IMG/VR virus record: IMGVR_UViG_3300025117_000146
Span: 1 to 38,344 of that record
Length of the DNA: 38,344 nucleotides
Source of the DNA: a virus
Reading direction: 5' to 3' (one strand)
Shown: positions 160 through 24,706 of the stretch, in pieces
Layout: each line of letters starts with the position of its first letter
Position numbering within the stretch: the first letter of the stretch is position 1
Notes under the pieces: generated by a model
Databases searched by the model: none
What the model saw: the letters and a program-made list of their open reading frames with translations, nothing else
What the model was told of the DNA's origin: nothing
Program-made: the position numbers and the translations under genes

Positions 160-361
160 AGGGTTGGATTTACTCCCTGGTCTGAGCCTGCAAACCGAGC
201 AGGCCAAGCCATAAATCCTCATACACCGGCAGCTTCTCGGATTGGCCTGGGGTGCCGGAGATCGCTTGCTTGAAATTTGGGTAATTTATGGTGGCCGTGA
301 GCGCGGCAAAAATTCGGTCGAGATCGCCCTGACCAAATTTTCAATATCACGGCGTTATGCG
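160..361. other. Non-coding left flank
   Basis: I see no convincing gene here. Short frames on both strands lack ribosome sites and protein-like composition. This is the downstream end of the leftward operon; I see no clear hairpin-plus-T terminator. Confidence 0.4.
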
Positions 362-577
362 CTATCTGACTTTTCGCCACACGACCACGCCATCGTCGCG
401 CATTCCGATTTGGAGGGTCAAGTTGGTTTCGGTCGCTGGCATGGTCACGTAGCCGCCTTTCCACTCAGGTCTTCCCCAGTCCACGGACGCCTTGCCCGCC
501 TCGAAGCCCGCGCATAACAAGATCACTCCAGCGAACAGCAGCCCCGGTATTCCGATTCGTTGCATTGTCTTTTTCAT
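362..577 (-). CDS. Small exported or membrane-anchored protein, hypothetical
   Basis: A 71-residue protein, last gene of the leftward operon. Residues 1-5 are basic (MKKTM), residues 8-24 form a hydrophobic stretch (IGIPGLLFAGVILLCAGF), and the rest is a short polar domain rich in beta-forming residues that ends in WRKVR. This looks like a signal peptide or signal anchor with a small periplasmic domain. AGAAAGA lies just upstream of the ATG at 577. The family is not recognised. At the end of an early phage operon such proteins are often accessory, for example superinfection exclusion, but nothing in the sequence proves that. Confidence 0.5.
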   Translation of the reverse strand: MKKTMQRIGIPGLLFAGVILLCAGFEAGKASVDWGRPEWKGGYVTMPATETNLTLQIGMRDDGVVVWRKVR

Positions 578-595
578 AGAGTCTTTCTGCCGTCG

Positions 596-706
596 TCAGC
601 ACAGCCCGGCTGCTGTCGCTGAGTTCCGGCGCTGGCGGGCGCGGACATGCCAGCCGTCCTGCTTTTTGACGATGCTGAAGAAACCGAGTGTGGAGGCGAT
701 CCACAT
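596..706 (-). CDS. 36-residue ORF resembling the N-terminus of a small conserved protein, probably truncated
   Basis: The ATG at 706 lies just after the stop of the 113-residue gene upstream, with GGAG before it, so coupled translation is plausible. The start MWIASTLGFFSIVKKQDGWH resembles, from memory, a small conserved bacterial protein family (pattern W-[IV]-[AS]-x(2)-G-[FW]-[FY]-S-[IV]-V) that is normally about twice as long. Here the frame ends after HVRARQRRNSATAAGLC, so the gene may be cut by a frameshift. The family match is recall only. Confidence 0.35.
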   Translation of the reverse strand: MWIASTLGFFSIVKKQDGWHVRARQRRNSATAAGLC

Positions 707-707
707 A

Positions 708-1049
708 TCAAAGCTCCATGCCTGCAGCGGCTTGGCCGGACGCCTGCAATGTGGCGAATTTCCGGGCTGCAGCCAAAACGCGTGGGTTCGTGGTGAGATA
801 TTCCAACTGTTCCGGGAATGGGCTGTCATCCCGCTGCACGATGACTGCCATGGGCCAGTCACGCCACGGCTCTCCATCGATAGGCTGGCAAAAAGCCAGC
901 CCGGCTGCCAGCAGGGCTGGCTTTGTTTCGATCATACAGACACGTCTGTCTACCAAGGCAAAAGGCGTTAGGACCCCAACACTCTCCTCTGCGATCCAAG
1001 CCCGTTTGAGAATTAGGTCTGGATCAGTCAAATCTTCGATAATTTTCAT
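708..1049 (-). CDS. Hypothetical protein, translationally coupled to the gpF-kinase fusion
   Basis: 113 residues starting MKIIEDLTDPDLILKRAWIA. The ATG at 1049 overlaps the stop of the 901-residue gene (ATGA), and GGAGG lies about five bases upstream, so this start is better than the longer MGGS start three codons earlier. Composition is that of a soluble mixed alpha/beta protein. The C-terminal third (EQLEYLTTNPRVLAAARKFA) should be helical. No known domain is recognised. Tight coupling to the minor head fusion suggests a functional link, perhaps as a partner or control protein, but this is inference from position alone. Confidence 0.6.
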   Translation of the reverse strand: MKIIEDLTDPDLILKRAWIAEESVGVLTPFALVDRRVCMIETKPALLAAGLAFCQPIDGEPWRDWPMAVIVQRDDSPFPEQLEYLTTNPRVLAAARKFATLQASGQAAAGMEL

Positions 1050-3751
1050 TGAACCTCCCACTTGGTATGATCGGTGCCGGGAGAGAGATTGACGTCCGCG
1101 CTTGTGCTGCCCAGATTTTTGGTTTTGAGCCCGTGCGGCATGTACGTAAACTCGTTCTCGTTGTCACCGTAAAAAAAGCTCTTTCCAGTGCCGGGGGTAC
1201 GCTCCATGAAATAGAGACCAGTGACGTGAGTGTGCGGAACAGCCGTAACGGTGCGCGTGCCGCTAAATACCGGTGCAAAAACTGACCCAGACTCATTAAC
1301 ACCCCGTTTGTAGACACCGCTTTGACCTTTCCGGAATGGGATAGCACCAGCATCTGTCTCAGTCCGTAAGACCCGGACCAAGCGCGCCTGCTGATCATTC
1401 CCTGAGAAGGACATGTTGGCCAATGTCTCTTGGACAAAGGCATGATAGATCTCCAAGCTCCGATCCAATTTCTCGCCCCATTTGTTGCGTAAATTATGAA
1501 GAGCTGCCACGGGCGGAGTCTCATAGAAATCGTCTGGCTTGGCGTACGCCAGGCGATCCATGAGCCAGTGTTTCACAGCTTTAGATACAGCAGACTTGCT
1601 GCTTGAAGACTGCTCATTGGCCCAATCTTCAATGATGGCCCAGTCACCACCGTTCTTGGACATATAATCCGCAACCTGAGAGACCAAGCTTTTAGCCGGA
1701 CCGGCGGTCGATGACGGTAGATGGTGTTTGGTGATCGTCGGCACGGTCTTGCTCACATCCCCCTGGACAGACTGCATCTGATTCAGCGTGGTGAGATAGT
1801 GCGCAGCCATGGCCTTCTCTTCATCCGTGCCGTCTGCAAGGAGTTTTTGCAGGGCCGGCTTTTGCGCCAAGGCCTTTTCGATCTTCGCCGCGTTATAATT
1901 GTGATCGCCTTGGCCGTGATGGTAGTTGATCGTCTTGGCCGCCTCGATGATTTGGTCGAAAAATACCTGGCTGGGATCGACAGTCACTCTTGCTTTGGGA
2001 GTGCGCAGCCGGTCGAAGACGTTGCCGTCGGCATCGACGGGACGGACATCGCCTGGGTGAGCCTGCTTGATTTCTGGCGCCATGCCGGCGAGGGCATCGG
2101 CTTTGCGCAGTCCTACAGTGTGCTTAGTGACTTGGTCCGCATAGCTGGGGTGGAAAGCGGTAGCCTCGTAATCGAGCGCCTTTTGGCCGACGCGCTTCAG
2201 GCTACTGATGCGTGCGGCGAGTGTATCGCGGATCTGCGGTGGCGCGGCGGCGAGGAGCTTGGCATCGTCGATTGCGGCGATTTGGCGGCCGATATCGTAG
2301 ATGTTCAGTTTCCCGAAAATTGCCGCGCGCTTGGCATTCAGACCGGGGTCCCGCATAGACCACAGCTCTACGGGGTGCACATTCCACTCGTCCGCGGTTT
2401 TTGCTGCACCTTGGGCGCGGAAGCGGAGGCCGCCGCCGTTATCAATGCGCCAAGGGGTGCCACTCTTATCGACCAGGATATTATCGAGATCGAGGCCGGC
2501 GACATCCCAATTACCGAGCAGGGCATCGGCGGCAAAATGCTGGCGCACTTTGCCCAGGATTGCCTCTTTCTCAGCCGCGCTCCCGGTGCGCAGGACTTCA
2601 GTCAGCGGGCGTCCGTCAATGAATCGAGCGAGCTTGGCGGGCTTGACCCCCTCGAATAATCGCGCCTCGGGGACGGGCACGCCCATGGCACGATACAGCT
2701 CGTCTGTGGTATGCTCATTGACAATATGCGACGGGCTATTTCCGCGCTTGAGCACGTATTGCGCGCCGGTGCGCGGGTCGCGAACTAACGTTGCGCCAGT
2801 GGTGCCGCCAAGGTCGCGGATGGTCTCAAGACTGGTCAATGAGCTTGGGAATTCTGGCTCTGTGGGAGGCTGCGCCGGTTTGGGCGTGCGCGGTTTTGGC
2901 GGGACGGCCAGCGCTTTGCCCTGGCGGTCACCCTTCCACCACGCGGCATCTTTGTCGATCTTGACCTGAGCACCCAAGCTATCCTTGAGATGCTGGATCA
3001 TATCCGGATCCAATCCACGGACGCTGGCTTGGAGGTCTCGGTTGAATGGCTGCTCGATCGGCTGGGCGCGCTCTCCAGGCTTGATGAGGCCGAGCCGCTC
3101 GGCTTCCGCGCGGTCCACATCCTCGACATCGTGTCCGCAGCCCCATCCCCATGGCCCCCATGGGACACCGAAATCCTGATTCACGGCGCGCCAAAAGTCG
3201 ATATCTGACTTCAGGTGCACCTCTCCCTCAAACCGTGTGTGCCAATCCCGCGGCTCCTTGACTGCGACCTCACGAATGAAACGCTGGGCAGGAAACTCGT
3301 CGAGGACATCCGGATCTTGGCCTTGCTGCCACCAGCCGTAGTCTTGGGCCTGGCGGGTCTGTGTGTCAAAGATAAGCTCTAGGCGTTGCTGGGTGCGAAT
3401 ATCCTTGATGGTGTCGGCATCATCCGGATCGAGCGGTGCCATGCCCTCGGCCACAGCGAACCGCTGCAGGTCGCGCACGAATTGCGCGCGGCTACCGGTC
3501 TTGAGCGCAGTCGTCTTGGTGGCGTCTGGCAACTCGATCTCCTCGCGGGCGGATGTGAGGTGATCGCGGATCGCATCGCGAGCCCGCTGGAGAAACCTAG
3601 CAGATTCGATCTCTGAGCTGAAAAATGCGCGCTCGCGCAGCGCCAGCGGCAACCGGCTCCACGCTTCAGCGTCGAGCTTGCTGGTGACGATAGTCTTTTG
3701 GTCCAGCTTCTCGAGGGCTTCCTTGAACGGCGTTGGTTTGATGAATTGCAT
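1046..3751 (-). CDS. gpF-like minor head protein fused to a HipA/PI3K-like kinase and a possible ADP-ribosyltransferase-like tail
   Basis: A 901-residue multidomain protein. Residues about 1-240 look like a Mu gpF/SPP1 gp7-type head morphogenesis protein (AFFSSEIESARFLQRARD at 42-59, W-rich QDYGWWQQGQD near 136-146, FWRAVNQDFGVPWGPWGWGCGHD at 186-208). A proline-rich linker (282-300) follows. Residues about 305-500 resemble the atypical kinase fold of HipA/actin-fragmin kinase/PI3K: glycine loop GGTTGATL (315-322), K335 in YVLKRG, E351 after it, GNWDVAGLDLDNIL (413-426, D416 and N424) and IDNGG (D437). The last ~110 residues (LVRVLRTE, YKRGVNESGS, GDNENEFTYMP) have the spacing of an R-S-ExE ADP-ribosyltransferase, which is tentative. 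The ATG at 3751 overlaps the upstream stop (TGATG). Known gpF proteins are minor virion parts; the added enzymes suggest delivery into the host (inference). In Mu this gene lies after the portal gene on the late strand; here it is in the early operon. Confidence 0.8.
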   Translation of the reverse strand: MQFIKPTPFKEALEKLDQKTIVTSKLDAEAWSRLPLALRERAFFSSEIESARFLQRARDAIRDHLTSAREEIELPDATKTTALKTGSRAQFVRDLQRFAVAEGMAPLDPDDADTIKDIRTQQRLELIFDTQTRQAQDYGWWQQGQDPDVLDEFPAQRFIREVAVKEPRDWHTRFEGEVHLKSDIDFWRAVNQDFGVPWGPWGWGCGHDVEDVDRAEAERLGLIKPGERAQPIEQPFNRDLQASVRGLDPDMIQHLKDSLGAQVKIDKDAAWWKGDRQGKALAVPPKPRTPKPAQPPTEPEFPSSLTSLETIRDLGGTTGATLVRDPRTGAQYVLKRGNSPSHIVNEHTTDELYRAMGVPVPEARLFEGVKPAKLARFIDGRPLTEVLRTGSAAEKEAILGKVRQHFAADALLGNWDVAGLDLDNILVDKSGTPWRIDNGGGLRFRAQGAAKTADEWNVHPVELWSMRDPGLNAKRAAIFGKLNIYDIGRQIAAIDDAKLLAAAPPQIRDTLAARISSLKRVGQKALDYEATAFHPSYADQVTKHTVGLRKADALAGMAPEIKQAHPGDVRPVDADGNVFDRLRTPKARVTVDPSQVFFDQIIEAAKTINYHHGQGDHNYNAAKIEKALAQKPALQKLLADGTDEEKAMAAHYLTTLNQMQSVQGDVSKTVPTITKHHLPSSTAGPAKSLVSQVADYMSKNGGDWAIIEDWANEQSSSSKSAVSKAVKHWLMDRLAYAKPDDFYETPPVAALHNLRNKWGEKLDRSLEIYHAFVQETLANMSFSGNDQQARLVRVLRTETDAGAIPFRKGQSGVYKRGVNESGSVFAPVFSGTRTVTAVPHTHVTGLYFMERTPGTGKSFFYGDNENEFTYMPHGLKTKNLGSTSADVNLSPGTDHTKWEVQ

Positions 3752-4089
3752 CAGCCAAAAATTTTATGGGCGTTGCGTCTCAGACGCTCGCTTCGGTCTA
3801 TCATGACGCGACCCTGGCTGGCGAGCCAATTGCAGGCGTGATCAATCTCTTCCGCGGTCGCATGCTCGATATGCTTGTAGCCTTTTTGGCCACTGATTAT
3901 CCACGCGCTGGCGCTCGCCAGGGTGCGAATCTGGCGGCGTCCATCCTCCGTATCCTCTTTGCCGCAGAGCTGCAGCAGCTCCGCCGCGCGGCGCCAGCCG
4001 GCGCGGCGCCTCAGCTCCTCTTCCAGCCAGCGGACATCGGCATCCGCAGCGGGAGCGGGCAGGAGGCTGAGTTGGACGGTGGTGGTCAT
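3751..4089 (-). CDS. Small winged-helix-like protein, hypothetical
   Basis: 112 residues starting MTTTVQLSLLPAPAADADVR. GAGAGAG lies just before the ATG at 4089, so the longer frame starting at 4167 is rejected. After a short N-terminal tail, residues 20-110 are helix-rich and end in a segment (AWIISGQKGYKHIEHATAEE and IDHACNWLASQGRVMIDRSE) that reads like the winged-helix unit of several phage DNA-binding proteins. It follows the GemA-position gene and so occupies the slot of Mor, the Mu middle activator, but I see no Mor sequence signature. DNA binding is a fair inference; the exact role is unknown. Confidence 0.6.
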   Translation of the reverse strand: MTTTVQLSLLPAPAADADVRWLEEELRRRAGWRRAAELLQLCGKEDTEDGRRQIRTLASASAWIISGQKGYKHIEHATAEEIDHACNWLASQGRVMIDRSERLRRNAHKIFG

Positions 4090-4102
4090 CTCTCTCGCTT
4101 TG

Positions 4103-4690
4103 TCAGAAGGGTGCGTTGTCGGATGGGACCAAAGCGACAGACGGCGCCAACGGCACGGATGGCTCACGCTGGCCGCGGGCGCGATTCTTGATGGTCATGT
4201 GCAGCTGGCCCAGGCGGCGGTCATCCAGGCCGCGCCAGTTGTCGGTGCCGAATTTGTGGCGGCACACAGCCACGAGGTAACTCTCCACACATCGGTTGGA
4301 CAGGTACCACATCACGCGCTTGCGTCGCTCTGCAGCCGGGTTGTGCCAGGCCATGGCCGCCGCCAGGGAATCCGGGTGAGCGAGGATGCGGAAGAGGGCG
4401 ACGATGCGGTCGGTCTCGGCATTCGTAAGATCGGAGGATGACTTGTCGTGGCCGATGGCGACGATGTGGCAGGCGTGGCGGAAGTCATCTGGGCTGAGCG
4501 CGCGGATCTCGGCGGTGGCGCGGGCGGCGGCCAGGACCCAAATGCGCTGGTAGATCTCATTGCTCTGCGGGTTGGCCCAGCACTCGAGTCGGTGGCTGGC
4601 GCAGCGTCCGCTTGCCATGCGCCAGCCGTGCGCGCGCGCGGCGGCGGTCCAGGCAGGGAAGTAGAAGCGGCGTTGCTGGGCGGGGGTCAT
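4103..4690 (-). CDS. GemA/gp16-position protein, hypothetical
   Basis: 195 residues from MTPAQQRRFYFPAWTAAARA; the ATG at 4690 overlaps the DUF551 stop (ATGA), so the 231-residue version is rejected. The opening MTPAQ..RFY plus an alpha-helical body (ETDRIVALFRILAHPDSLAA near 128-147, then a C-terminal part around KRVMWYLSNRCVESYLVAVC and KFGTDNWRGLDDRRLGQLHM) resembles the general plan of DUF1018/Gp16 (GemA) regulators of Mu-like phages. These also begin MTPxQ and sit near the end of the early operon. The match is loose, and a phage-specific family is equally possible. Mu GemA alters host DNA supercoiling and gene expression; that role is not shown here. Confidence 0.55.
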   Translation of the reverse strand: MTPAQQRRFYFPAWTAAARAHGWRMASGRCASHRLECWANPQSNEIYQRIWVLAAARATAEIRALSPDDFRHACHIVAIGHDKSSSDLTNAETDRIVALFRILAHPDSLAAAMAWHNPAAERRKRVMWYLSNRCVESYLVAVCRHKFGTDNWRGLDDRRLGQLHMTIKNRARGQREPSVPLAPSVALVPSDNAPF

Positions 4691-9801: not shown

Positions 9802-9841
9802 CTTCCTGCGCCCATTCGCTGAAGGTGTTTTGTTCGCTCAT
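9791..9841 (-). CDS. 16-codon leader-type ORF
   Basis: ATG at 9841 overlaps the ParB-like stop (ATGA) and the frame ends TAA at 9791-9793, just inside the next gene's start region. Product MSEQNTFSEWAQEDEG. It may only carry ribosomes from the ParB gene to the zinc-finger gene (translational relay), since GGAAG lies in it just ahead of the next ATG. A spurious frame is also possible. Confidence 0.3.
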   Translation of the reverse strand: MSEQNTFSEWAQEDEG

Positions 9842-15639: not shown

Positions 15640-15885
15640 ATGAACCTCGACCCCGCCAAACGCCTGGCACTCCGCGCGCTCTCGCGCATGGGGGATCAGC
15701 CAATGCCCGCGGATGCGCTCCGCGATTCCATCCGGATCATACATCCGCAACTCACCGCTGGGGATGCGGATCGAGCCGTGCGCGACCTGGAGGCGGATGG
15801 CTACATCGCCGGCACCCATGTGGACCTGGTGGGCATCCTCTGGAGTCTCACGCCCAAGGGCGCGAGCAAAGCCAATCAATTATGA
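15640..15885 (+). CDS. Mu gp26-like small winged-helix protein
   Basis: 81 residues. The pattern RLALRALSRMGDQPMPADAL ... ADRAVRDLEADGYI ... LVGILWSLTPKGASKA is a compact winged helix: three helices, then a wing ending in T-x-x-G-x-x-x-A. It is like the Mu gp26/VpaChn25_0724-type family that precedes the small terminase in Mu-like phages. The ATG lies directly after the 7-mer array, with no Shine-Dalgarno, so it may be translated by coupling or poorly. DNA binding for packaging or regulation is inferred. Confidence 0.55.
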   Translation: MNLDPAKRLALRALSRMGDQPMPADALRDSIRIIHPQLTAGDADRAVRDLEADGYIAGTHVDLVGILWSLTPKGASKANQL

Positions 15886-15905
15886 GGATCTGCACTCCCA
15901 AATGA

Positions 15906-16469
15906 ATGAAGACACGGCCCAGCAAGCTCGATCAATTCACCGACCGAATCGAGGAATGGTTTGGGGCGGAAAAGATCACGATCGCCGCTGCGCGCGATCG
16001 GCTAGCGGGCTTGGGCTGTCACGTCTCCTCGGGTCGGCTCTCGCAGTGGTGGTCTGCGCGGCAGCAACGAGCGATGGAGGATCAATTGCTGGCGCGAGTG
16101 GCCAGTGGCGCGCAACTGAGCCGCGAGATCGAGTCCAGGTTCGCACGCAATGCGCCGCCGGAAGTCAGCACGATCATCCAGCTGCTCCAGACCATCATCC
16201 TCCAGCTTGGGGTCCAGGGCACAAGCGACGAGCGGCTATTGCTCATCGCAAGCAATCTTCTCAGGCCCGTCATGGAGTGGCAAAAGCTGGAGCAGAGCAA
16301 AGCCGAATTTGGTTTGGCCAAGGAACGGTTCCAGCGCGAGACATGCGAGCTGTTCGTCCAATGGGCCGAGGATCAGCAGGCCAAAGATATTTTGAGCGCG
16401 GGCAACAAATCGAACGAGGAAAAGATCGCGGCGGTCTACCAGCTCATGTTTGGGGGACAGAAGAAATGA
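15906..16469 (+). CDS. Mu gp27-like small terminase (DUF3486-type)
   Basis: 187 residues. It begins MKTRPSKLDQFTDRIEEWFG, close to the R-x-R/K-P-S-K-x-D-x-L start of the DUF3486 family (Mu gp27), followed by an HTH-like part (ITIAAARDRLAGLGCHVSSG, RLSQWW). The second half is helical (STIIQLLQTIILQLG; LEQSKAEFGLAKERFQRETC). Small terminases bind phage DNA and help start packaging. The stop overlaps the large terminase ATG (ATGA). An ATG four bases upstream (15902) is out of frame. The upstream gap holds no repeat. Confidence 0.7.
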   Translation: MKTRPSKLDQFTDRIEEWFGAEKITIAAARDRLAGLGCHVSSGRLSQWWSARQQRAMEDQLLARVASGAQLSREIESRFARNAPPEVSTIIQLLQTIILQLGVQGTSDERLLLIASNLLRPVMEWQKLEQSKAEFGLAKERFQRETCELFVQWAEDQQAKDILSAGNKSNEEKIAAVYQLMFGGQKK

Positions 16470-18358
16470 GCAGCCCGCGAAATACACGAAAGAATCTGTC
16501 CAATGCGCAACCCCAGAAGAAAAGGGGCCGCAGCAACGCGGCAGTGCAAGCAAGGCCAAGTGCTGGCTCGGTAGCCAATGCCTCGACCGGTCTGTCCGGT
16601 GAATCCGCCTCTGACGAGCGCGAACTGCAGAGTAAGCCGGAGTGTGTGGCTGCTCCTGAATCCGCGCCCCAGGCTGGCAGGCAGACTACGGAGTTCGCGA
16701 AAAGCACTCCACTGGCTGGACGTGAGACATCGCGGTCCGGCGGTGAATCCAGCAGCAACCTTGCTTCTGCCGCGCCGAGTGCGGCCCCACCTTTTGGCAT
16801 CCGGGCCGGCCAGCGCGAGCTCGAGCGCGGCATCGACGAGCACCGCATTGTGGGGTTCCTCACCCGCCGACAGTACGGCAAGACCACCGAGGCCGCGCGC
16901 ATCGCGCTCAAGAAAATGATGCGCATCGCCGGGCATGACGTCGTATTCGGCTCGGTCAAACTGGACCTCGGCCGCGAGATGGTGCGAAAGGAAGCGGCCC
17001 AGATGCAGCGGGCCTTCGCTCTTCTGGCCGCCCAGGCCGCGGCGGCGCAGACCCTGCTCGATGTCGTGGACCCGCTCAAGCATCGGTCCGTGGCGGGCAT
17101 CCATGTGGATGACTGGAGCGAGCTCTACGAGCAATCCCGGCTCGAGTTCCGGCTCTACCACAGCCGCACGATCTACAGCCGCACCAAGGTGGTCGCTCTC
17201 ACCCCGGATGCGGTCGGTGAGACGGGCGACCTGATCCTGGACGAGGTTGGGCGCGTCAAGCATTTCCGGGCGGTGTGGGAAGCCGTCAAACCTATCATAT
17301 CGAGCAATCCTCAATTCCGTTGCCTGCTCACCACCACGCCGCCGCCGGATGACTCGCATTATTCGTTCGAGCTGCTCGCGCCGCCGGTGGGCGAGGAGTG
17401 CCCGGTCCGGCCCGAGGGCAACTGGTACCGCAGCGAGCTCGGGGTCTGGGTCCTGCGCGTCACGGCCTGGGATGCGTATGCGGACGGCATCCCGCTCTAC
17501 GACGATGACACCGGCGAGCCGCTGGATCCGGATGCCAGCCGCGCTCGGGATCACGACAAAGAAGCGTGGGACCGCAATTACGGTGTGAAATTCATTTTCG
17601 GCGGTACATCGGCCTGCAGCTTCATCGCGCTCGACACGGCCCAGAAGCGGGGGGTTGGGCAGTGTGGATATTTCAATATCCAGAGCGACTCGGATTTTGG
17701 TCCCGCACTCGTGTGGCTCGGACACCATCTCGGTAATGGACCCATCGGCCTGGGCTGGGATCTGGCCACCACCACCAAAGCCACCAGCAACCCGAGCGCG
17801 TTGTGTGTCATGGAACGGCAAGGGGCGGAGTACATTCACCGCGCGATTGTCACGTGGAAAACTGCTGACCCGGACATCGCCATCGAGCGCGCGATGCGTA
17901 TCGCGCGGGTGGTCCGCAGCCGTCCCGCAGGCCCGGCGCGGCGGCTCTGCATCGACGCCACGAACGAGCGCTACTTCGCGCAGAGTGCGCGCAAGGAGCT
18001 GGGCAGCGAGGTCCCGGTCGAGCTGGTGGTGGGTAGTGAGACGACGCAACGGCCGGGCATGGAGGAGCCGCTGACGATGAAGCAATATTTAGGAGGCCTG
18101 CTCGTGGGTGAGCTGGACGATAATCATCTCCTGCTGCCGCCGGAGCGCTACGTGCGCGAGGATTGGCGTCTGGTGCGCAAGGAGCGCGGCCAATTCGTGT
18201 GCGAGCCGGACGTGGATGGCAAGCATGGGGACACGTTTGATGCGGCCAAGCTCGCACTCCATGCGCTCACGGGCAGCGGCCCGTTTTTCTGCCAGCAGGT
18301 CAAACCACGGAAACAAGACCATCGGCGAATCGAGCGGACGAAGGGGGTGCTGGTATGA
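16466..18358 (+). CDS. Terminase large subunit (Mu gp28-like)
   Basis: 630 residues; the ATG at 16466 overlaps the gp27-like stop, so the 881-residue open frame is rejected. Residues 1-110 are a low-complexity Ser/Ala/Gln-rich tail whose start (SSPRNTRKN) is encoded by the CCCGCGAAA/TACACGAAA repeat. The ATPase core follows: Walker A RRQYGKTT (134-141), Walker B LILDE (256-260), motif III LLTTTPPP. The nuclease domain has an RNase H-like set of acids: D432 (GLGWDLATTTKA), D497 (RLCIDATN) and D589/D592 (KHGDTFDAA). It pumps DNA into the prohead and cuts it; in Mu-like phages packaging runs from the phage end into host DNA. Confidence 0.85.
   Translation: MSSPRNTRKNLSNAQPQKKRGRSNAAVQARPSAGSVANASTGLSGESASDERELQSKPECVAAPESAPQAGRQTTEFAKSTPLAGRETSRSGGESSSNLASAAPSAAPPFGIRAGQRELERGIDEHRIVGFLTRRQYGKTTEAARIALKKMMRIAGHDVVFGSVKLDLGREMVRKEAAQMQRAFALLAAQAAAAQTLLDVVDPLKHRSVAGIHVDDWSELYEQSRLEFRLYHSRTIYSRTKVVALTPDAVGETGDLILDEVGRVKHFRAVWEAVKPIISSNPQFRCLLTTTPPPDDSHYSFELLAPPVGEECPVRPEGNWYRSELGVWVLRVTAWDAYADGIPLYDDDTGEPLDPDASRARDHDKEAWDRNYGVKFIFGGTSACSFIALDTAQKRGVGQCGYFNIQSDSDFGPALVWLGHHLGNGPIGLGWDLATTTKATSNPSALCVMERQGAEYIHRAIVTWKTADPDIAIERAMRIARVVRSRPAGPARRLCIDATNERYFAQSARKELGSEVPVELVVGSETTQRPGMEEPLTMKQYLGGLLVGELDDNHLLLPPERYVREDWRLVRKERGQFVCEPDVDGKHGDTFDAAKLALHALTGSGPFFCQQVKPRKQDHRRIERTKGVLV
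16474..16491. repeat. TTTCGCGKG repeat (inverted), inside the terminase N-terminus
   Basis: CCCGCGAAA-TACACGAAA is the reverse complement of TTTCGTGTA-TTTCGCGGG. It begins six bases after the terminase ATG and is translated as part of its N-terminal tail. Confidence 0.75.
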
Positions 18359-18621
18359 ACGGTCGCAAATGGCAGATGGCAGATGGCAAATGGCAAATGG
18401 CAAATGGCAAATGGCCTCGGTTGGCAACCCTTTTTCCGCCGTTGGTTCGTGAAATTTCGTTTGTAAGGCTGCGTATAGGCGTTTGGGCACATTCCTACCG
18501 GGTGGGTGCAAAAACCTCCTATTGTACCAATGCAGGCTATTGCAGCCATCGTAGTGCGGGACCTGACTCCCCGATCAGCCAAAGTATGAGTCCGGGCTCA
18601 GCAACCCTTTTCCGCGCGTGA
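18355..18621 (+). other. Composite repeat region between terminase and portal, open as an 88-codon frame
   Basis: This 260-base gap holds seven GCAAATG/GCAGATG units (18365-18413), then a stretch with two direct copies of GCAACCCTTTT(T)CCGC (18424-18439 and 18601-18615). The frame is open throughout: its ATG overlaps the terminase stop (ATGA) and its TGA overlaps the portal GTG (GTGA). The product (MNGRKWQMADGKWQMANGKW...) is not protein-like, so I read it as repeat DNA kept open for translational coupling rather than a functional gene. Confidence 0.5.
18365..18413. repeat. GCAAATG 7-mer tandem array
   Basis: Seven units in a row: GCAAATG, GCAGATG twice, then GCAAATG four times. Confidence 0.9.
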
Positions 18622-20198
18622 ACACCACTTCCCAAGTCACTCCAGAGCTTGTCCGGCGCTCGATCCAGGGCCGGTTCAATCCGCTCCGTGGGCTGACACC
18701 GGAGACATTGAGCCAGCAACTGGATTGGTTCCGCGCCGGCTACCTGCGCCAACTGGCCCTGACCATGGAAGCGATCGAGGAGCGGGATGACATCATTGCG
18801 GGAGTGGCGCCCAAAAGGCGAAAAGCGGTGGCTCGCCACGGCTTCGAGATACTCACACTACCGAATCTTTCGGACGCGGACAAGACCCGAGCGGACCGGC
18901 ACGCCGCCGCGCTCCAGTATTTCTACGATCATTGCGAGTGTACTAATGCACTCGATCTGGACGAGCGCGGATCCTTCAAGCTGCTCGTCCGACAAATGAT
19001 GGATGCGCCCGGCAAGCGTTGGGCCGCCCATGAGATCCTCTGGCAGCCATCGCCCGGCGGGCTGACCGCTGAGTTCCGGTTTGTGCCGCTCTGGTTCTTC
19101 GAGCGCATCACGGGCCAGCTGCGGTTCCTCGACATCAATAAGAGTGTCGAGGGACAGCCACTCGAGGCTGGCGCCTGGATGATCACTCGAGGAGACGGTA
19201 TCATGATCGCTTGTGCCGTGGCATGGATGTTCAAGAGCATCGGCCTCAAGGACTGGCTCATTTATAGCGAAAAACATGGGATGCCCGCGCTCCAGGGCAA
19301 GACGGATGCCGCCAAGGATAGCCCCGAGTGGACCGCGATGGTGGATGCGGTCGTGGCTATCGCATCAGATTTTTCGTGTGTGACGTCCAAAGGGGATCTG
19401 ATCGAGAAGATCGATCTCTCGACTGAGGGGCAACTACCTTATCCGCCTCTAGTGGAGCGTATGGATCGCGCGCTAGCCATCCTCTGGCGCGGTGGTGACC
19501 TAAGCACGTTGTCGAAGGGCGGCGAGGCCGTGGGGTCACAATCGCAGCAGGGCGAGAGCGAGATGCTCGAAGAGGATGATGCCGGGATGATCGGCGAGAC
19601 TCTCAATACTTGGATAGATCCATGGGTCATCCGGTACACGGTGGGAGATGATCGGCCGTTGGCGTATGTCAAGATCCGGACACAAAACCGGCAAGACACG
19701 AAGCTCGAGATCGAGGTGGATAAATTCCTGCTCCAGTCCGGAGCGCCACTCTCGGTCGAGAGTACGCTCGAACGCTACAACCGGCCACAGCCTGAGCCGG
19801 ACGCGCTGTTACTCACGCCGCCTGCCGCCGGTTTCCCTGGCCAAACGCCCTACCCGGCCCTCGAAAATGAGGCGGTCAATCAACAGCTCCTCAATAATGT
19901 CCTCGAAGGCCTCACCGGCGTGAAGGCCCAGTGGCTCGGTGGTGTGAAACCGTTCTTTCGCCGCCTTCTTGATGCCGCGCGCGCTCACACACTCTCGGAT
20001 GCCGATTTCGTGCAGACACTCGACCACGCACAAAGGGAGATACCAGAACTATTCTCCAAGCTCGACAAGCAAGCCCTGGCTAACGCGCTCGAGGCGGCCA
20101 TGGGCGCGGGCGCACTTAACGGCGCGCTCCGAGGCTATATGACGCGGCCCACGAATGTGGAAAACCAAAAGCGGAAAGCAGAGGCAATCGATGTTTGA
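18618..20198 (+). CDS. Portal protein, DUF935/Mu gp29-like
   Basis: 526 residues, start GTG at 18618 overlapping the stop of the preceding open frame. DUF935 hallmarks are visible: PLRGLTPETLSQQLDWFRAG near the start, DDIIAGVAPKRRKAVARHGF (55-75), then FDHC-like FYDHCECTNALD, WAAHEILWQ, PLWFFERITG, and GDGIMIACAVAWMFKSIGLK-D-W (~195-215), GMPALQGK and the acidic SQSQQGESEMLEEDD loop. The portal forms the ring in one head vertex through which DNA passes. In Mu the gpF minor head gene follows at once; here it is missing and a palindromic repeat fills the gap before the gpG-like gene. Confidence 0.85.
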   Translation: MNTTSQVTPELVRRSIQGRFNPLRGLTPETLSQQLDWFRAGYLRQLALTMEAIEERDDIIAGVAPKRRKAVARHGFEILTLPNLSDADKTRADRHAAALQYFYDHCECTNALDLDERGSFKLLVRQMMDAPGKRWAAHEILWQPSPGGLTAEFRFVPLWFFERITGQLRFLDINKSVEGQPLEAGAWMITRGDGIMIACAVAWMFKSIGLKDWLIYSEKHGMPALQGKTDAAKDSPEWTAMVDAVVAIASDFSCVTSKGDLIEKIDLSTEGQLPYPPLVERMDRALAILWRGGDLSTLSKGGEAVGSQSQQGESEMLEEDDAGMIGETLNTWIDPWVIRYTVGDDRPLAYVKIRTQNRQDTKLEIEVDKFLLQSGAPLSVESTLERYNRPQPEPDALLLTPPAAGFPGQTPYPALENEAVNQQLLNNVLEGLTGVKAQWLGGVKPFFRRLLDAARAHTLSDADFVQTLDHAQREIPELFSKLDKQALANALEAAMGAGALNGALRGYMTRPTNVENQKRKAEAIDV

Positions 20199-20217
20199 CA
20201 CTCAGCCTCAATCTTTC

Positions 20218-20249
20218 GCGCCTGCCTGCGCAGGCAGGTGTTTCGCGGG
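20218..20249. repeat. Left copy of 32-bp inverted repeat with nested palindrome
   Basis: Contains the perfect 18-base palindrome CCTGCCTGCGCAGGCAGG (20221-20238) followed by TGTTTCGCGGG. With the preceding TTTCGCG it reads as a TTTCGCGTGTTTCGCGGG repeat split by the palindrome. The identical 32 bases occur inverted at 20866-20897. Confidence 0.9.
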
Positions 20250-20258
20250 TCAACAGGT

Positions 20259-20864
20259 ATGATCACCGTCTCTGTCATAGACCAAGCCAGCCCGGAGCTG
20301 CGCGCACTCAGTGCGCGAGTCAGCAATCCCATCCCTGGGCTCAAGGTCGCGGGCCGCGCGGTGGCTAACCTCCTGCGCGCACACTACCGCCGCAAAGATC
20401 AGACCGAGCCCAATAAACTCGGCGGACGCCGCACCCACTATTGGAGAGCGGTTGCGCACAGCGTGCACAACCCGGTCCAGAGCGGCGCCCAGCAAGTGAC
20501 CGTGAGCATCAACGATCCTACCATTGGCCACAAAATCATGGGGGGACGCATCACAGCCAAACGCGCCAAAATGCTCACTATACCCGTGCGGGCCGAGGCG
20601 CATGGCAGATATGCCGCAGTCCTGGAGCGCGCCCTGGGGATCAATCTGTTCCTGGTCAAAAAAGGCAGCAAAGCGTTCCTCGCCGGACGGACACAGAACA
20701 AGGGCAAGACAGGCGCGCTCAGAATATTTTACGTGCTTAAGCGCTGGGTCGATCAGCGGGCGGATCCCACGGCGCTCGTGCCCGAACCGCAGATGCGGGC
20801 CACGGCCACCGCTTATTTCGGGCGCTGGGTCATGCGCAACACGCGCAGCACTGGGACAACATAG
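20259..20864 (+). CDS. gpG-like virion morphogenesis protein
   Basis: 201 residues from MITVSVIDQASPELRALSAR. A GTG at 20238 would add seven residues encoded by the flanking repeat and is less likely. Family-like features: a V-A-x-x-L-R-x-H-[FY]-R segment (VANLLRAHYRRKDQTEPNKL), GGRRTHYWRAVAHSV, a VTVSINDPTIGHKIMGGRIT loop, and LTIPVRAEAHGR. These fit the phage virion morphogenesis (Mu gpG/gp31) family that links heads and tails. The gene is bracketed exactly by the two arms of the 32-bp inverted repeat, so it could in principle invert as a unit. Confidence 0.7.
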   Translation: MITVSVIDQASPELRALSARVSNPIPGLKVAGRAVANLLRAHYRRKDQTEPNKLGGRRTHYWRAVAHSVHNPVQSGAQQVTVSINDPTIGHKIMGGRITAKRAKMLTIPVRAEAHGRYAAVLERALGINLFLVKKGSKAFLAGRTQNKGKTGALRIFYVLKRWVDQRADPTALVPEPQMRATATAYFGRWVMRNTRSTGTT

Positions 20865-20865
20865 G

Positions 20866-20897
20866 CCCGCGAAACACCTGCCTGCGCAGGCAGGCGC
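20866..20897. repeat. Right copy of 32-bp inverted repeat with nested palindrome
   Basis: Begins CCCGCGAAACACC and carries the same 18-base palindrome (20878-20895). It is the exact reverse complement of 20218-20249, so the two arms lie 616 bases apart around the gpG-like gene. Confidence 0.9.
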
Positions 20898-20908
20898 AAA
20901 AAGAAAAT

Positions 20909-22189
20909 ATGATGCCAGAACCTAAATCCGACGAGACAGAGCAAGAGTTTACCGCACGATTCATGGGCGATCCAGATATGATGCAGGAATACCCAGATGC
21001 AGCGCAGCGCATGGCCATGTGCAAAAAGCAGTGGCAGAAAAGCAGGGAGATCATGCCCGCCGACAACACACTCGCTACCGGCCTGGCCAATGAATATAGC
21101 GTGGGGGCTGATGGATGGGTGCGGATCGCTCCTTATGGGGATCATGTTAAAGAGCGGACGATTCGCGATACTATCGGCACTCGGCAGGAGACATTGCTGC
21201 AGCGGCTGGACCGCGCCTCTGCGCAGGCGATGGTCGATAAATTCCATTCCTTTTTGGGCCGGATCAAACGGTTCATCGTGGGTGTGCCCATTTTCCGTCG
21301 CCACCCGGATCTGGCTGAGCACGCCCCCGACACGGTCGCAGCCATGTCCAATGATACCAATACTTACGGCATGTTTGCCGCGCTGGAAGCCCGCGAGGAT
21401 GGGTTCTACGGACGGCCCGTCGTCAGCAAAGACGGCCAGGCCGCAATCGAACACGAGGGGTTGAAATACCTGTCACCATTTTGGTGGGTGAAGCGCATTG
21501 GGGAAAACAATGGGGTTCCTATTGTTTCTCCCACTGAGCTTATCTCCGCCGGACTCACCAACTCACCTAACATCCCCGGCGGGGAAGCTTTGGCCAACGC
21601 CAAAGACAAAATCATGAATCAGACGACGCTCATCGCACTACTCGCAAAGTTTGGCATCGCGTTGGCCAATGAAGCCACCGACGACCAGATCTCAGCCGAG
21701 ATAACCAAGCTCGGCCAAAAAGCGCAGGCGGCTGCCGCGCTGGAAAATGAAAAGACCACCACGGTCACAGAAATCAACAAGCTCAAAGACCAGGTCAACA
21801 GCAAAGAGACGGAGATATCAGCCGGCAAAGTCGCTCTTATGAATGAGCGAAATGCCCGGATCGAGCTCTTGGTCGATGCCGCGATCCGAGGAGCACGCAT
21901 CCTGGCCGGCGACCGCCAATCCCGCATCAACGCGCTCAAGTCGGATTTCGAAGGCGGCAAGACAGCGCTTGAGAATGAGAAGCCGAAAATGAACACCCAC
22001 TCTCAGGTCGGCGCACTGGGTGCGCGCCTCGGGGAAGGACAACGCAGCACCACGGCTCTGAGCGCCATCACCGCTCTCGCCAATGAGCGCCGCGGAAAGA
22101 ATGGCGGGGATTGGGATGAAGCCTGGGCCTATGCGCTCGAGCAGAAACCTGAGCTCGCCGAGCAACTCCACAAACCGGGCGTGAAGTAA
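20909..22189 (+). CDS. Mu gpI-like prohead protease/scaffold
   Basis: 426 residues. The start region (EQEFTARFMGDPDMMQEYPD, AAQRMAMCKKQW) is the small motif often found at the N-terminus of prohead proteases. Residues 50-230 carry the protease-like domain of Mu gpI: ANEYSVGADGWVRIAPYGDH, then VGVPIFRRHPD and LKYLSPFWWVKR. Residues 245-350 are a long coiled coil rich in Glu, Lys and Asn (ENEKTTTVTEINKLKDQVNS), the scaffold part. The C-terminus ends EQLHKPGVK. In Mu, the protease matures the head and the scaffold part is removed. Translation of a shorter scaffold-only product is possible from the M at about residue 237. Confidence 0.75.
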   Translation: MMPEPKSDETEQEFTARFMGDPDMMQEYPDAAQRMAMCKKQWQKSREIMPADNTLATGLANEYSVGADGWVRIAPYGDHVKERTIRDTIGTRQETLLQRLDRASAQAMVDKFHSFLGRIKRFIVGVPIFRRHPDLAEHAPDTVAAMSNDTNTYGMFAALEAREDGFYGRPVVSKDGQAAIEHEGLKYLSPFWWVKRIGENNGVPIVSPTELISAGLTNSPNIPGGEALANAKDKIMNQTTLIALLAKFGIALANEATDDQISAEITKLGQKAQAAAALENEKTTTVTEINKLKDQVNSKETEISAGKVALMNERNARIELLVDAAIRGARILAGDRQSRINALKSDFEGGKTALENEKPKMNTHSQVGALGARLGEGQRSTTALSAITALANERRGKNGGDWDEAWAYALEQKPELAEQLHKPGVK

Positions 22190-22223
22190 TCGCCTCAACA
22201 GACGCAACACACAGAAAACTCTT

Positions 22224-22424
22224 ATGACAAAAAATTCACTCGAACAACTGCAGGCGGAGAATGACAAACTGCGCGCGGAACTCAAGGACGCCGGGTTGGA
22301 CCCGGACGCGATCCGCGCCAAGGTCGCCGCCGGCCTCACCAAGGACCAAGCCATCGAGGTGCTCAAGGCTCAAGCAGCCTGGGACATCGAGCTGGCCAAA
22401 CTTAACCAACCCAAAACCAACTGA
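22224..22424 (+). CDS. Small coiled-coil protein
   Basis: 66 residues: MTKNSLEQLQAENDKLRAEL, then LDPDAIRAKVAAGLTKDQAI and a helical end. It looks like a short coiled coil followed by a helical hairpin. It lies between scaffold and decoration genes, so a head-assembly helper is plausible. No family recognised. Confidence 0.6.
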   Translation: MTKNSLEQLQAENDKLRAELKDAGLDPDAIRAKVAAGLTKDQAIEVLKAQAAWDIELAKLNQPKTN

Positions 22425-22465
22425 CCACTGACAACGACGATTAACTACTGACCAAGGACAAAACC

Positions 22466-23233
22466 ATGTTCACATTCCTCATAATCCTCCTCACCGTTTT
22501 AGCGCTCTTTAGCGTGTTTCGCGGGCCAAATCGGATCGCGCTCGCGAACATTTCCGAGGGCACGCACCAAGGCACCACCACCAAAAAGGCGGATGGTGTC
22601 ATCAACCGCAACATCCTCCTCAAGCTCGGCTCCGACGCCAAGCATGTGACCATCTGCACCGCCGCCGATATCCCCATTGGCATCTCCGAGGATGAGGCCG
22701 ACGAAGCTGAGGACCTGCTCCACGTCCATTTCCTTGGGGCGAGCGATCGCACCAAGGTCATGACCGCATCCGAAGCCATCACAGCGGGCGAGGATGTTTA
22801 CACGGCCGCCGCCGGCAAGGCCCAGGATCTGCCAGTGGCCGCCGGCACCTACTACCATGTGGGGCGGGCGCTCACCGCCGCCACCGGCGACGGCGTCGAG
22901 ATCGAAGTCGAGACGTGTGTGCCCGAGAAGCTCGTGGTCATTGCCGCGCTCACCAGTGCCGACACCGACCTGGGTTCACTCACACTCACTGCCCCGGATG
23001 CGCTGACTGTCGGAGCTGATATCGGAGTCTTCACCGATCCGCCGAGCGCGGCGGAAATGGCACTGTTGCGCACCTTCGTGAATGCGTTGAAGGCCGACGT
23101 GACCGCCCTCCGCGCCACCGTCAACACGCATAAGACCGAGGGCGAGGCCATAGCGGACGCCGCCGAGGTGCTGGCGGATGATGTGCGCGAGATCGCCGTG
23201 GCTGCCACCGGCGGCAACGTCAAAATCCTGTAA
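22466..23233 (+). CDS. Head decoration-like protein with repeat-derived hydrophobic N-terminus
   Basis: 255 residues. AAGGACAAAACC before the ATG at 22466 is a good ribosome site. Residues 27-150 (ALANISEGTHQGTTTKKADG, ... VTICTAADIPIGISEDEADE, ... AAGTYYHVGRALTA) resemble capsid decoration/DUF2190-type proteins placed just before the major capsid gene. Residues 1-25 (MFTFLIILLTVLALFSVFRG) are hydrophobic, and their end is encoded by the TTTAGCGTG-TTTCGCGGG repeat (22508-22525). So a repeat inserted after the start codon appears to have lengthened the protein. The C-terminal third is helical and ends AATGGNVKIL. Confidence 0.65.
   Translation: MFTFLIILLTVLALFSVFRGPNRIALANISEGTHQGTTTKKADGVINRNILLKLGSDAKHVTICTAADIPIGISEDEADEAEDLLHVHFLGASDRTKVMTASEAITAGEDVYTAAAGKAQDLPVAAGTYYHVGRALTAATGDGVEIEVETCVPEKLVVIAALTSADTDLGSLTLTAPDALTVGADIGVFTDPPSAAEMALLRTFVNALKADVTALRATVNTHKTEGEAIADAAEVLADDVREIAVAATGGNVKIL
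22508..22525. repeat. TTTCGCGKG repeat inside the decoration gene start
   Basis: TTTAGCGTG-TTTCGCGGG, preceded by a decayed TTTAGCGCTC (22498-22507). Translated as SVFRG in the N-terminal extension. Confidence 0.8.
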
Positions 23234-23257
23234 TAACATAATCCACACGAATCAATT

Positions 23258-24271
23258 ATGAAGCCAACTCAATTCGCACTTTTGAACGAACAAGCCATTC
23301 TCGCCGCCGAGGGGATTCTCCCGATGCTGCCGGCCCATCTCGATCACGGTCAAGTCGCCCTGGCTAACGACACGATGTTAGCCGAAGCTTACTGGAGCGA
23401 GGAACTCACCGGGTACTCTGTCGGCTGGAAAGACCAGCGCAACATCGAAGAGACGCTCGATTTTTGTGCGCCTCCCGTGCCGGTGAACCGGCTCTTCCGC
23501 TATACGGAGTTCACGCACGCGGAAGCGTTTCTCGAGGAGCCGAACGATGAAGATATCCGCGCCATGAACGCGGATTTCAAAACGGTCAAACCTTACACGG
23601 AGACCAAGACGAATGCCGAGACCGAGAACAAAGGGCTCACCATTATCCTGGATCTCGACCGCGTGCTGCAGAAGCCGAACTGGCGGCAGCGCTACACCGG
23701 CAAGCTCACCGAACGCTTGCTCCGCACGGAGCTGCGCCGCGCCGTGGCGCTCATCTCGGCGGCGGCCACAAACACCGCTGTGACGTGGGACACCACGGCC
23801 GGCAAGGACCCGGATCAGGACATCAAGACCGGTCTGCTCGCGGGCGAGACAGCCTCGGGCATTTACCCCAACCGCGTCTGCTACGGCGCCACGGCGTGGA
23901 ACAAGCGTGGCCTGAGCCATCGGGCACAGAACCTCGCCGGTGGCTATGCCAGCGCCGGGCAAACGCCGGCGCAAGTCGCTGCCTTCCTCGGCGTGGACGC
24001 TGTCCACGTGAGTTCCCAACGATACCGGACATCAGCATCAGCCCTGGCCGAGCTTGTAAACAACCTGGTCTTCGGTTGCTACTGCACGACAGGTGTGGAC
24101 GAAGATGATCCCGCGAACTGCAAGCGGTTCTTCACCCCGACCGAAGGCGGGACGAAATACCGTGTCTACGAGCAGCAGCTCAGCGCCAAGCTCTACGCGA
24201 TCACCGTCGAGCATTACAGCCTGGTGAAGATCACCAGCACACTCGGCCTGCGCAAGTGGACCGTCTCGTAA
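23258..24271 (+). CDS. Major capsid protein
   Basis: 337 residues, starting MKPTQFALLNEQAILAAEGI. It follows protease/scaffold and decoration genes and precedes the gp36-like gene, exactly where Mu gpT lies. Visible features: YWSEELTGYSVGWKDQRNIE near 48-67, DFCAPPVPVNRLFRYTEF, a long helix (RYTGKLTERLLRTELRRAVA, the spine-helix position of HK97-like capsids), and a C-terminal beta end (AKLYAITVEHYSLVKITSTL). No cleavage site can be fixed by eye. Identity rests on position, size and general features. Confidence 0.75.
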   Translation: MKPTQFALLNEQAILAAEGILPMLPAHLDHGQVALANDTMLAEAYWSEELTGYSVGWKDQRNIEETLDFCAPPVPVNRLFRYTEFTHAEAFLEEPNDEDIRAMNADFKTVKPYTETKTNAETENKGLTIILDLDRVLQKPNWRQRYTGKLTERLLRTELRRAVALISAAATNTAVTWDTTAGKDPDQDIKTGLLAGETASGIYPNRVCYGATAWNKRGLSHRAQNLAGGYASAGQTPAQVAAFLGVDAVHVSSQRYRTSASALAELVNNLVFGCYCTTGVDEDDPANCKRFFTPTEGGTKYRVYEQQLSAKLYAITVEHYSLVKITSTLGLRKWTVS

Positions 24272-24289
24272 CCGCCACACACACCCGCG

Positions 24290-24706
24290 ATGGACTGGAT
24301 CACACTCACGGAATCGGACCTGCTGACGGTCGTCTCTGACGCTGAGCTCACCGCCTGGCGCCAGACCGCTCTGGCCGCCGGGCAGGCGGATCCCGTGAGT
24401 GCAGTCATGGCTACGGTCGCGCTCCTGGTGCGTGGTTACGCCGCGCACCAGGTCACCCCCGGAGCGACCGGGACAATCCCGGACACGCTCACCAGCACCG
24501 CCTTGGATCTCGTCGCATACAGACTGCCGCTCCGGGTGGGAGACAAACCAACCGAAGCGCGCAAGAACGCATACGATGCGGCCATGGAGCTGCTCCGGTC
24601 GTGCGCCAAAGGTGAGTTCAAGCTCGCCGGCGGCGGGCCGGCCCGCGCCGAGATCGTGACCAGCAGCGACCGGCAGACGAGCCGCGAAAAACTCGAAGGG
24701 CTATGA
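24290..24706 (+). CDS. gp36-like head-tail connector (DUF1320-type)
   Basis: 138 residues. The plan fits DUF1320 (Mu gp36): WITLTESDLLTVVSDAELTA at the start, a middle helix VMATVALLVRGYAAH, and ALDLVAYRLPLRVGDKPTEA followed by AYDAAMELLRSCAKGEFKLA. These small helical proteins attach to the portal and begin the neck. It follows the capsid gene as in Mu. Confidence 0.75.
   Translation: MDWITLTESDLLTVVSDAELTAWRQTALAAGQADPVSAVMATVALLVRGYAAHQVTPGATGTIPDTLTSTALDLVAYRLPLRVGDKPTEARKNAYDAAMELLRSCAKGEFKLAGGGPARAEIVTSSDRQTSREKLEGL

What the first reader, a model, noticed from the sequence alone, without database searches (positions are those of the whole stretch)
1046..3751. Minor head protein fused to an atypical kinase and a possible ADP-ribosyltransferase
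Seen: a gpF-like start, a kinase-like core with a glycine loop, K335, D416/N424 and D437, and a C-terminal block with R, S and E-N-E-F elements. Known: gpF/gp7 minor head proteins are part of the virion, phage T4 Alt is an ADP-ribosyltransferase carried in the head and injected, and HipA-type kinases phosphorylate host translation targets. Inference: a single virion-borne polyprotein could deliver two host-modifying enzymes.
Basis: partly seen in the sequence, partly recalled or inferred. Interest (0 to 1): 0.82.

Follow-up and report, generated by a model that had tools for sequence, protein, structure and literature searches.

The report
Phage head protein carrying two enzymes
A Mu-like virus of Verrucomicrobiota bacteria fuses its only minor head protein to a compact protein-kinase domain and a likely ADP-ribosylating domain, so each particle probably injects two host-modifying enzymes, and two small neighbouring genes that track with it are candidate antidotes.

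Summary
Residues 1-265 are a MuF/gpF-type minor head domain, the only one found in this 38-kb Mu-like phage. Residues 305-500 adopt a protein-kinase fold (AlphaFold pLDDT 95; Rio2 Z 11.7, actin-fragmin kinase Z 10.3) with catalytic residues invariant or nearly so in 63 relatives. Residues ~700-901 carry an invariant R796...S821...E865-x-E867 motif with the spacing of phage R-S-E ADP-ribosyltransferases; fold support there is weak but points to the same family. Full-length orthologues (47-54% identical) lie in Verrucomicrobiota genomes. Related phages keep the MuF part and swap the C-terminus (apparent HExxH peptidases, other tails), as in MuF polymorphic toxins. New here: two small genes. gA overlaps the effector stop codon and was seen only with kinase-ART genes. 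gB follows the kinase widely: 8 of 8 gB phage records carry it, about 54 of 70 gB viral contigs do, and 0 of 35 kinase-free MuF contigs have gB. I read gA and gB as candidate immunity partners, by analogy with the MuF-ART toxin Bxa. Activity, targets and virion location are inferred.

The parts
1046..3751 (-). MuF-kinase-ART effector gene, 901 aa
   Evidence: intact ORF; orthologues of 876-917 aa, 47-54% identical, in Verrucomicrobiota genomes
2957..3751 (-). residues 1-265: MuF/gpF-type minor head domain
   Evidence: PHROG 220 at 4.5e-10; Akkermansia phage 'head morphogenesis' protein 2e-28; 71 relatives in IMG/VR
2840..2956 (-). residues 266-304: proline-rich linker
   Evidence: sequence
2252..2839 (-). 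residues 305-500: compact atypical kinase domain
   Evidence: AF2 pLDDT 95.4; PDB matches are kinases or APH; invariant catalytic residues
1412..2236 (-). residues 506-780: helical region; its last part is probably the helical start of the ART domain
   Evidence: AF2 model, pLDDT 89 for 506-901; conserved K727, G701
1049..1411 (-). residues 781-901: ART core with R796, S821, E865-x-E867
   Evidence: invariant motif in 23 relatives; spacing as in Pfam-recognised phage ARTs; weak fold matches to C3, Plx2a, VIP2
708..1049 (-). gA, 113 aa, ATGA overlap with the effector stop: candidate immunity partner of the ART part
   Evidence: homologues directly downstream of the same gene in L016, L017, L168-L171, L173; none in 75 MuF-only loci
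596..706 (-). N-terminal piece (36 codons) of gB, the kinase-linked partner gene; the gene is interrupted in this window
   Evidence: intact homologues in L016, L168, L170, L173
173..340 (-). C-terminal piece of the interrupted gB
3751..4167 (-). conserved small upstream gene, one-base overlap with the effector start
   Evidence: homologues at the same place in L016, L096-L099, L101, L104, L105, L107, L135
5411..9745 (-). Mu-type transposition module (Gam, MuB, MuA) upstream on the same strand
15713..24706 (+). late head genes: terminase, portal, protease, scaffold, major head protein, head-tail adaptor

Best explanation
The gene encodes a MuF-family phage effector. Its N-terminus takes part in head assembly (known for MuF proteins; inferred here), so a few copies travel in the particle and enter the next cell with the DNA. 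There the kinase domain (ATP; K335, D416, D437) phosphorylates, and the ART domain (NAD; R796, S821, E865/E867) ADP-ribosylates, host molecules to restrain the host or favour lysogeny or takeover. The cell that makes the particles is protected by small partner proteins: gA for the ART part and gB for the kinase part. Shown here: the architecture, kinase fold, motif conservation, purifying selection, exchange of C-termini on a constant MuF part, and linkage of gA and gB. Inferred: enzyme activity, packaging, injection, targets, and the immunity role of gA and gB.
For: MuF part. Only MuF-like gene in the record. Kinase. ART. Recurrent fusion of this kinase to head proteins: of 60 N-termini, 16 match Pfam Phage_Mu_F, 5 Phage_portal, 5 Phage_portal_2 and 3 Phage_min_cap2 (PHROG head families). 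One orthologue, L173, lies between portal and the next head gene. Yersinia phage fHe-Yen8-01 has this kinase plus a Pfam ADPrib_exo_Tox domain in one protein annotated 'phage particle associated'. C-terminal exchange. gB: 8 of 8 phage records with gB carry the kinase; of about 70 gB viral contigs with full flanks 35 have the kinase within 9 kb and 19 more elsewhere on the contig; 0 of 35 kinase-free MuF contigs have gB; all 8 distinct MuF-fused kinase loci have gB, Fisher p about 7e-9 (relatedness ignored). In fHe-Yen8-01 gB (gp132) is not among the gene products annotated as particle-associated, whereas gp129, 130, 131, 133, 134 and 135 are. Precedent: Bxa, a prophage MuF-ART with two immunity proteins (PMC11699363).
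Against: No biochemistry or virion proteomics for this phage. No Pfam match to the ART part; Foldseek finds no significant match; the ART fold matches have Z below 5; profile comparison with phage ARTs is only marginal (4 of 200 shuffles score as high). gB also occurs without the kinase in Verrucomicrobiota chromosomes (27 of 388 genomes have gB, 7 the kinase, 4 both), so it is not a dedicated phage gene. gB is interrupted in this very window. The effector gene sits at the end of the transposition-gene strand, opposite to the late genes, so late expression is not obvious.
Confidence: 0.62

Rival explanations
1. Alt-like takeover factor: the virion-borne protein modifies host enzymes early in infection for the phage's benefit and is not toxic to the producer. 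gA and gB are then chaperones, packaging aids or activators, not antidotes.
For: Phage T4 Alt is a head-packaged ART (PMC5512222; T4 annotation). Kinase relatives occur in large phages whose ART protein is annotated as particle-associated. gB often lies 1.4 kb away, or tens of kb away, from the kinase, which is unlike most toxin-immunity pairs.
Against: gA overlaps the effector stop codon and C-termini are exchanged on one MuF part, as in MuF polymorphic toxins. The similar arrangement Bxa/Bsi/BAH is toxin plus immunity.
Confidence: 0.27
2. Only one of the two domains is an enzyme: the C-terminal part is not an ART but a structural or binding domain that happens to conserve R, S and E-x-E.
For: No Pfam or Foldseek match for 506-901; VIA Z only 4.5-4.9.
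Against: The nine invariant positions across 23 divergent sequences include the ART catalytic set; S-to-E distance is 44 as in phage ARTs and R-to-S 25 against 27. Among the VIA matches the rows aligning about 150 residues across helical and strand parts are ARTs. hhalign puts R on Alt's R, and S and E-x-E on those of phage ARTs. Distant relatives of the kinase carry Pfam-recognised ARTs at their C-terminus.
Confidence: 0.15
3. The fusion is a plain structural minor head protein with degenerate, inactive enzyme domains, kept only for assembly.
For: Phage Mu's own F protein carries an inactive C-terminal domain according to PMC5512222.
Against: Catalytic residues of both domains are invariant or nearly so and selection on both is as strong as on the MuF part. 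Related phages do with other C-termini.
Confidence: 0.06

Closest known systems
MuF polymorphic toxins (Jamet et al. 2017, PMC5576092)
   Same: MuF head domain at the N-terminus, exchangeable C-terminal toxin domain, small gene directly downstream, temperate (here transposable) phage
   Different: Two enzyme domains in series; the paper's main text does not mention kinases; the gene lies on the transposition-gene strand instead of the packaging module
Bxa of a Bacteroides stercoris prophage (PMC11699363)
   Same: MuF-ART protein with two small partner genes; there shown to be toxin plus two immunity proteins
   Different: No kinase reported; Bxa's partners are an ADP-ribosyl hydrolase (BAH) and the binder Bsi; whether gA or gB are related to them was not tested
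Polyvalent proteins and their kinase group (Iyer et al. 2017, PMC5512222)
   Same: Several effector domains fused in one phage protein, a reduced kinase reported mainly from Verrucomicrobia/Chlamydia and Bacteroidetes (pro)phages, ARTs, MuF
   Different: Their kinases are described with a conserved histidine before the catalytic aspartate, with an insert between the two; here the loop reads N-W-D without histidine. Their alignment could not be consulted, so identity of the two groups is open
HipA-like kinases (Pfam HipA_C, HipA_2)
   Same: N-x-D...N loop and later D; sub-threshold HMM matches in a minority of relatives
   Different: No HipA N-terminal domain matched, below curated cut-off, shorter C-lobe
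Phage T4 Alt
   Same: Head-carried R-S-E type ART in phage; R796 block aligns with Alt's catalytic R block (weak)
   Different: No significant overall similarity; Alt has no MuF or kinase part

Membership tests
MuF polymorphic toxin | N-terminal MuF-type head domain | tested here: met
   PHROG 220 at 4.5e-10 and head-morphogenesis relatives; Pfam Phage_Mu_F itself is not matched by this sequence but by 16 of 60 N-termini of kinase relatives
MuF polymorphic toxin | Variable C-terminal effector on a constant N-terminus | tested here: met
   Relatives of this MuF part carry two classes of tails with an HExxH motif, kinase-ART, kinase plus another tail, and a JAB-like tail (tail classes named by eye from motifs)
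MuF polymorphic toxin | Small downstream gene | tested here: met
   gA, 113 aa, ATGA overlap, conserved
MuF polymorphic toxin | Toxicity and neutralisation by the downstream gene | not testable with these tools
   needs expression in a laboratory strain
R-S-E ADP-ribosyltransferase | R, S(TS), E-x-E catalytic residues in order and spacing | tested here: met
   R796, S821, E865-x-E867 invariant in 23; spacing 25/44 against 27/44 in Pfam-recognised phage ARTs
R-S-E ADP-ribosyltransferase | ART fold | tested here: inconclusive
   C3bot1 Z 4.9 over 156, Plx2a Z 4.7 over 158, VIP2 Z 4.5 over 149 residues; no significant Foldseek hit
Protein kinase-like fold | Two-lobed kinase fold with K, E, D, N, D | tested here: met
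   1063 PDB matches at E up to 1e-3, the listed ones all kinases, kinase-homology domains or APH; Rio2 Z 11.7 over 170, AFK Z 10.3 over 182 residues
HipA | Pfam HipA_C at its curated cut-off, HipA N-terminal domain | tested here: not met
   14.4 bits against 30.5; no Couple_hipA match
Polyvalent-protein kinase group (Iyer 2017) | Reduced C-lobe, histidine and insert before the catalytic aspartate, conserved glutamine in the last N-lobe strand | tested here: inconclusive
   C-lobe is short and the hosts fit, but the loop lacks the histidine; their alignment was not available
Virion protein | Present in purified particles | not testable with these tools
   indirect only: fHe-Yen8-01 relative annotated as particle-associated

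The most novel reading that the evidence does not exclude
A widespread, so far undescribed class of phage-delivered kinases works with a dedicated partner, gB (W, S, R-x-R, DY..R, Y-x-N-F-K signature), that protects the producing cell or switches the kinase; in Verrucomicrobiota Mu-like phages it is combined with an ART and its own partner gA into a double-warhead particle. Solo gB genes in bacterial chromosomes would then be orphan immunity genes.
Probability: 0.4. Interest if true: 0.78.

Novelty: new variant of a known kind. Interest (0 to 1): 0.62.

Why it matters
It would give a concrete, testable case of a phage particle that delivers two different protein-modifying enzymes in one polypeptide, extend MuF toxins to kinases, and name a small gene (gB) whose tight co-occurrence with the kinase across diverse phages offers an entry to its target and antidote. 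Relatives exist in cultivable phages (Pseudomonas phages Jeremy and Dolphis, Aeromonas phage ST4), so the kinase-gB link can be tested at once.

Tried and rejected
Direct relatives by single-sequence scan of IMG/VR: none, solved by profile searches. Pfam on the whole protein: nothing useful. PDB sequence searches: nothing. Foldseek of 506-901 against PDB and viral models: no convincing hit; the top viral hit, a 'DEDDh domain containing protein', spans about 240 columns at TM 0.28 and was not pursued. Idea that gB is exclusive to kinase phages: rejected, since many Verrucomicrobiota chromosomes hold gB without a kinase in assorted contexts. Idea that the opposite-strand position is a misassembly: unlikely, since the same layout recurs in at least six other contigs. 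An early Fisher table used a wrong count; the corrected one is.

Full report
What is there. The stretch 1046-3751 is a single intact 901-codon ORF on the minus strand. The record is a 38,344-bp IMG/VR virus contig of a Mu-like phage: Gam, MuB, a MuA-like transposase and a ParB-like gene lie upstream on the minus strand; terminase, portal, protease, scaffold, major head protein, adaptor and tape measure lie on the plus strand. The ORF is the only match to itself in the record.

Domain 1, residues 1-265, is a minor head protein of the MuF/gpF kind. It matches PHROG 220 at 4.5e-10 and the 'head morphogenesis' protein of Akkermansia phages at 2e-28. 71 IMG/VR contigs encode relatives. In several related Mu-like phages the relative sits in the same order after MuA, MuB, Gam and the two small genes g4103 and g3751.

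Domain 2, residues 305-500, is a kinase. The AlphaFold model has mean pLDDT 95.4 and pTM 0.90. Foldseek gives 1063 PDB chains at E up to 1e-3; those listed are protein kinases, kinase-homology domains and APH enzymes. VIA-align ranks Rio2 first (Z 11.7, 170 aligned, rmsd 3.1) and gives actin-fragmin kinase Z 10.3 over 182 residues; rows within one Z unit are tied. In 63 relatives G316, E346, D409, D416, D423, N424, R435 and D437 are invariant and K335 is at least 90% conserved. HipA_C and HipA_2 are matched below threshold by a minority of relatives. So it is an atypical kinase of HipA/AFK/Rio-like appearance, not a HipA by membership.

Domain 3, residues about 700-901, is most likely an ART. 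No HMM library names it. Nine positions are invariant in 23 divergent relatives, among them R796, S821, E865 and E867. In phage proteins where Pfam does recognise ADPrib_exo_Tox, R-to-STS is 27 and S-to-E 44 residues in most; here 25 and 44. hhalign, though weak (4 of 200 column shuffles score as high), places S and E-x-E on the right columns of those ARTs and the R block on T4 Alt's R block. VIA-align's matches to C3bot1, Plx2a and VIP2 are weak (Z 4.5-4.9) but align about 150 residues across helices and strands. I put the ART assignment at about 80%.

Is it a virion effector? The kinase family is mostly a phage affair: 19 of 50,697 phage records against 2 of 72,556 plasmid records. Of 60 N-termini attached to this kinase, 16 match Phage_Mu_F, 5 Phage_portal, 5 Phage_portal_2 and 3 Phage_min_cap2, and PHROG head families dominate. 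In L173, a Verrucomicrobiota genome, the full-length orthologue lies between portal and the next head gene. In Yersinia phage fHe-Yen8-01 the kinase and a Pfam ART share a 2146-aa protein annotated as particle-associated. Homology there covers the kinase only. None of this is proof for the window's phage.

Polymorphism. On the same MuF part related phages carry other tails: 22 and 16 loci with two different HExxH-bearing tail classes, one kinase with a different tail (L100), one JAB-like tail (L103) and the kinase-ART tail. Tail classes other than kinase-ART were read by eye from one representative each.

Partner genes. gA (708-1049, 113 aa) overlaps the effector stop as ATGA; homologues follow the same gene in L016, L017, L168-L171 and L173 and were not seen in 75 MuF-only loci, nor in the phage collection. 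gB, about 112 aa, follows. Sampled without regard to the kinase, 35 of 71 gB viral loci with full 9-kb flanks have the kinase within the flank, usually upstream on the same strand, and 19 of 35 further contigs have it elsewhere. In the annotated phages 8 of 8 gB records carry the kinase; several of these phages are probably related, so the eight are not independent. None of 35 kinase-free MuF contigs carries gB. Seen from the kinase side, 34 of 104 distinct kinase loci with at least 3 kb downstream have gB, so the coupling is not obligatory at close range. gB also lives in chromosomes without the kinase. In the window gB is interrupted: a 36-codon N-terminal piece (596-706) and a C-terminal piece (173-340) flank about 255 bp of other sequence.

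Host. Full-length orthologues are in Verrucomicrobiota metagenome-assembled genomes, 47-54% identical, so a Verrucomicrobiota host is likely; the window itself is unlabelled.

Layout. In the window the effector is at the contig end on the strand opposite to the late genes. The same layout recurs in contigs G394-G397, G402 and G404, while G398-G401 and G405 are co-directional. Timing of expression is therefore an open question.

Comparison with what is known. MuF polymorphic toxins with ART tails are known (PMC5576092; PMC9503650), Bxa being a tested case with two immunity proteins (PMC11699363). Kinases in multi-domain phage proteins, especially of Verrucomicrobia, were reported (PMC5512222), with features that only partly fit this family. 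I found no description of this kinase on MuF, of the MuF-kinase-ART order, or of the gA and gB links in the papers read; the library is incomplete. Hence 'new variant of a known kind'.

Noticed in passing
window 173-706 (-): gB, the kinase-linked gene, is split by about 255 bp containing a roughly 71-codon ORF with a hydrophobic start (about 361-577); intact homologues exist in related loci.
   Followed up: partly
L243-L262 (Verrucomicrobiota chromosomes): gB homologues occur in 27 of 388 genomes, mostly in assorted, non-phage-looking neighbourhoods without the kinase; function unknown.
   Followed up: partly
L156, L097, L112: The same MuF part carries tails with HELIH/HEFGH motifs, probably two kinds of zinc peptidase, in some 38 loci.
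   Followed up: no
L103:9638-11392: MuF protein with a SHNHPGG..FS..DL tail that looks like a JAB/MPN domain; head genes there are divergent from it.
   Followed up: no
L003, L010, L012, L013: In several large phages the kinase-ART gene is followed by a ~165-aa gene, then a Nudix/nucleotide phosphatase gene, then gB: a possible ADP-ribose or nucleotide clean-up module.
   Followed up: no
window 1-15 kb against 15-38 kb; G394-G397, G402, G404: Two genome layouts in this phage group: transposition genes plus MuF on the strand opposite to the late genes with MuF at the end, or all co-directional.
   Followed up: partly
L004, L009 (Gordonia phages Sixama, Mareelih): Portal gene followed by a stand-alone kinase-domain protein and then a separate ADP-ribosyltransferase gene: the two enzymes as neighbours in place of a fusion.
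   Followed up: partly
window 9838-10815 (-): ParB-like protein upstream of the MuA-like transposase, conserved in related phages.
   Followed up: no
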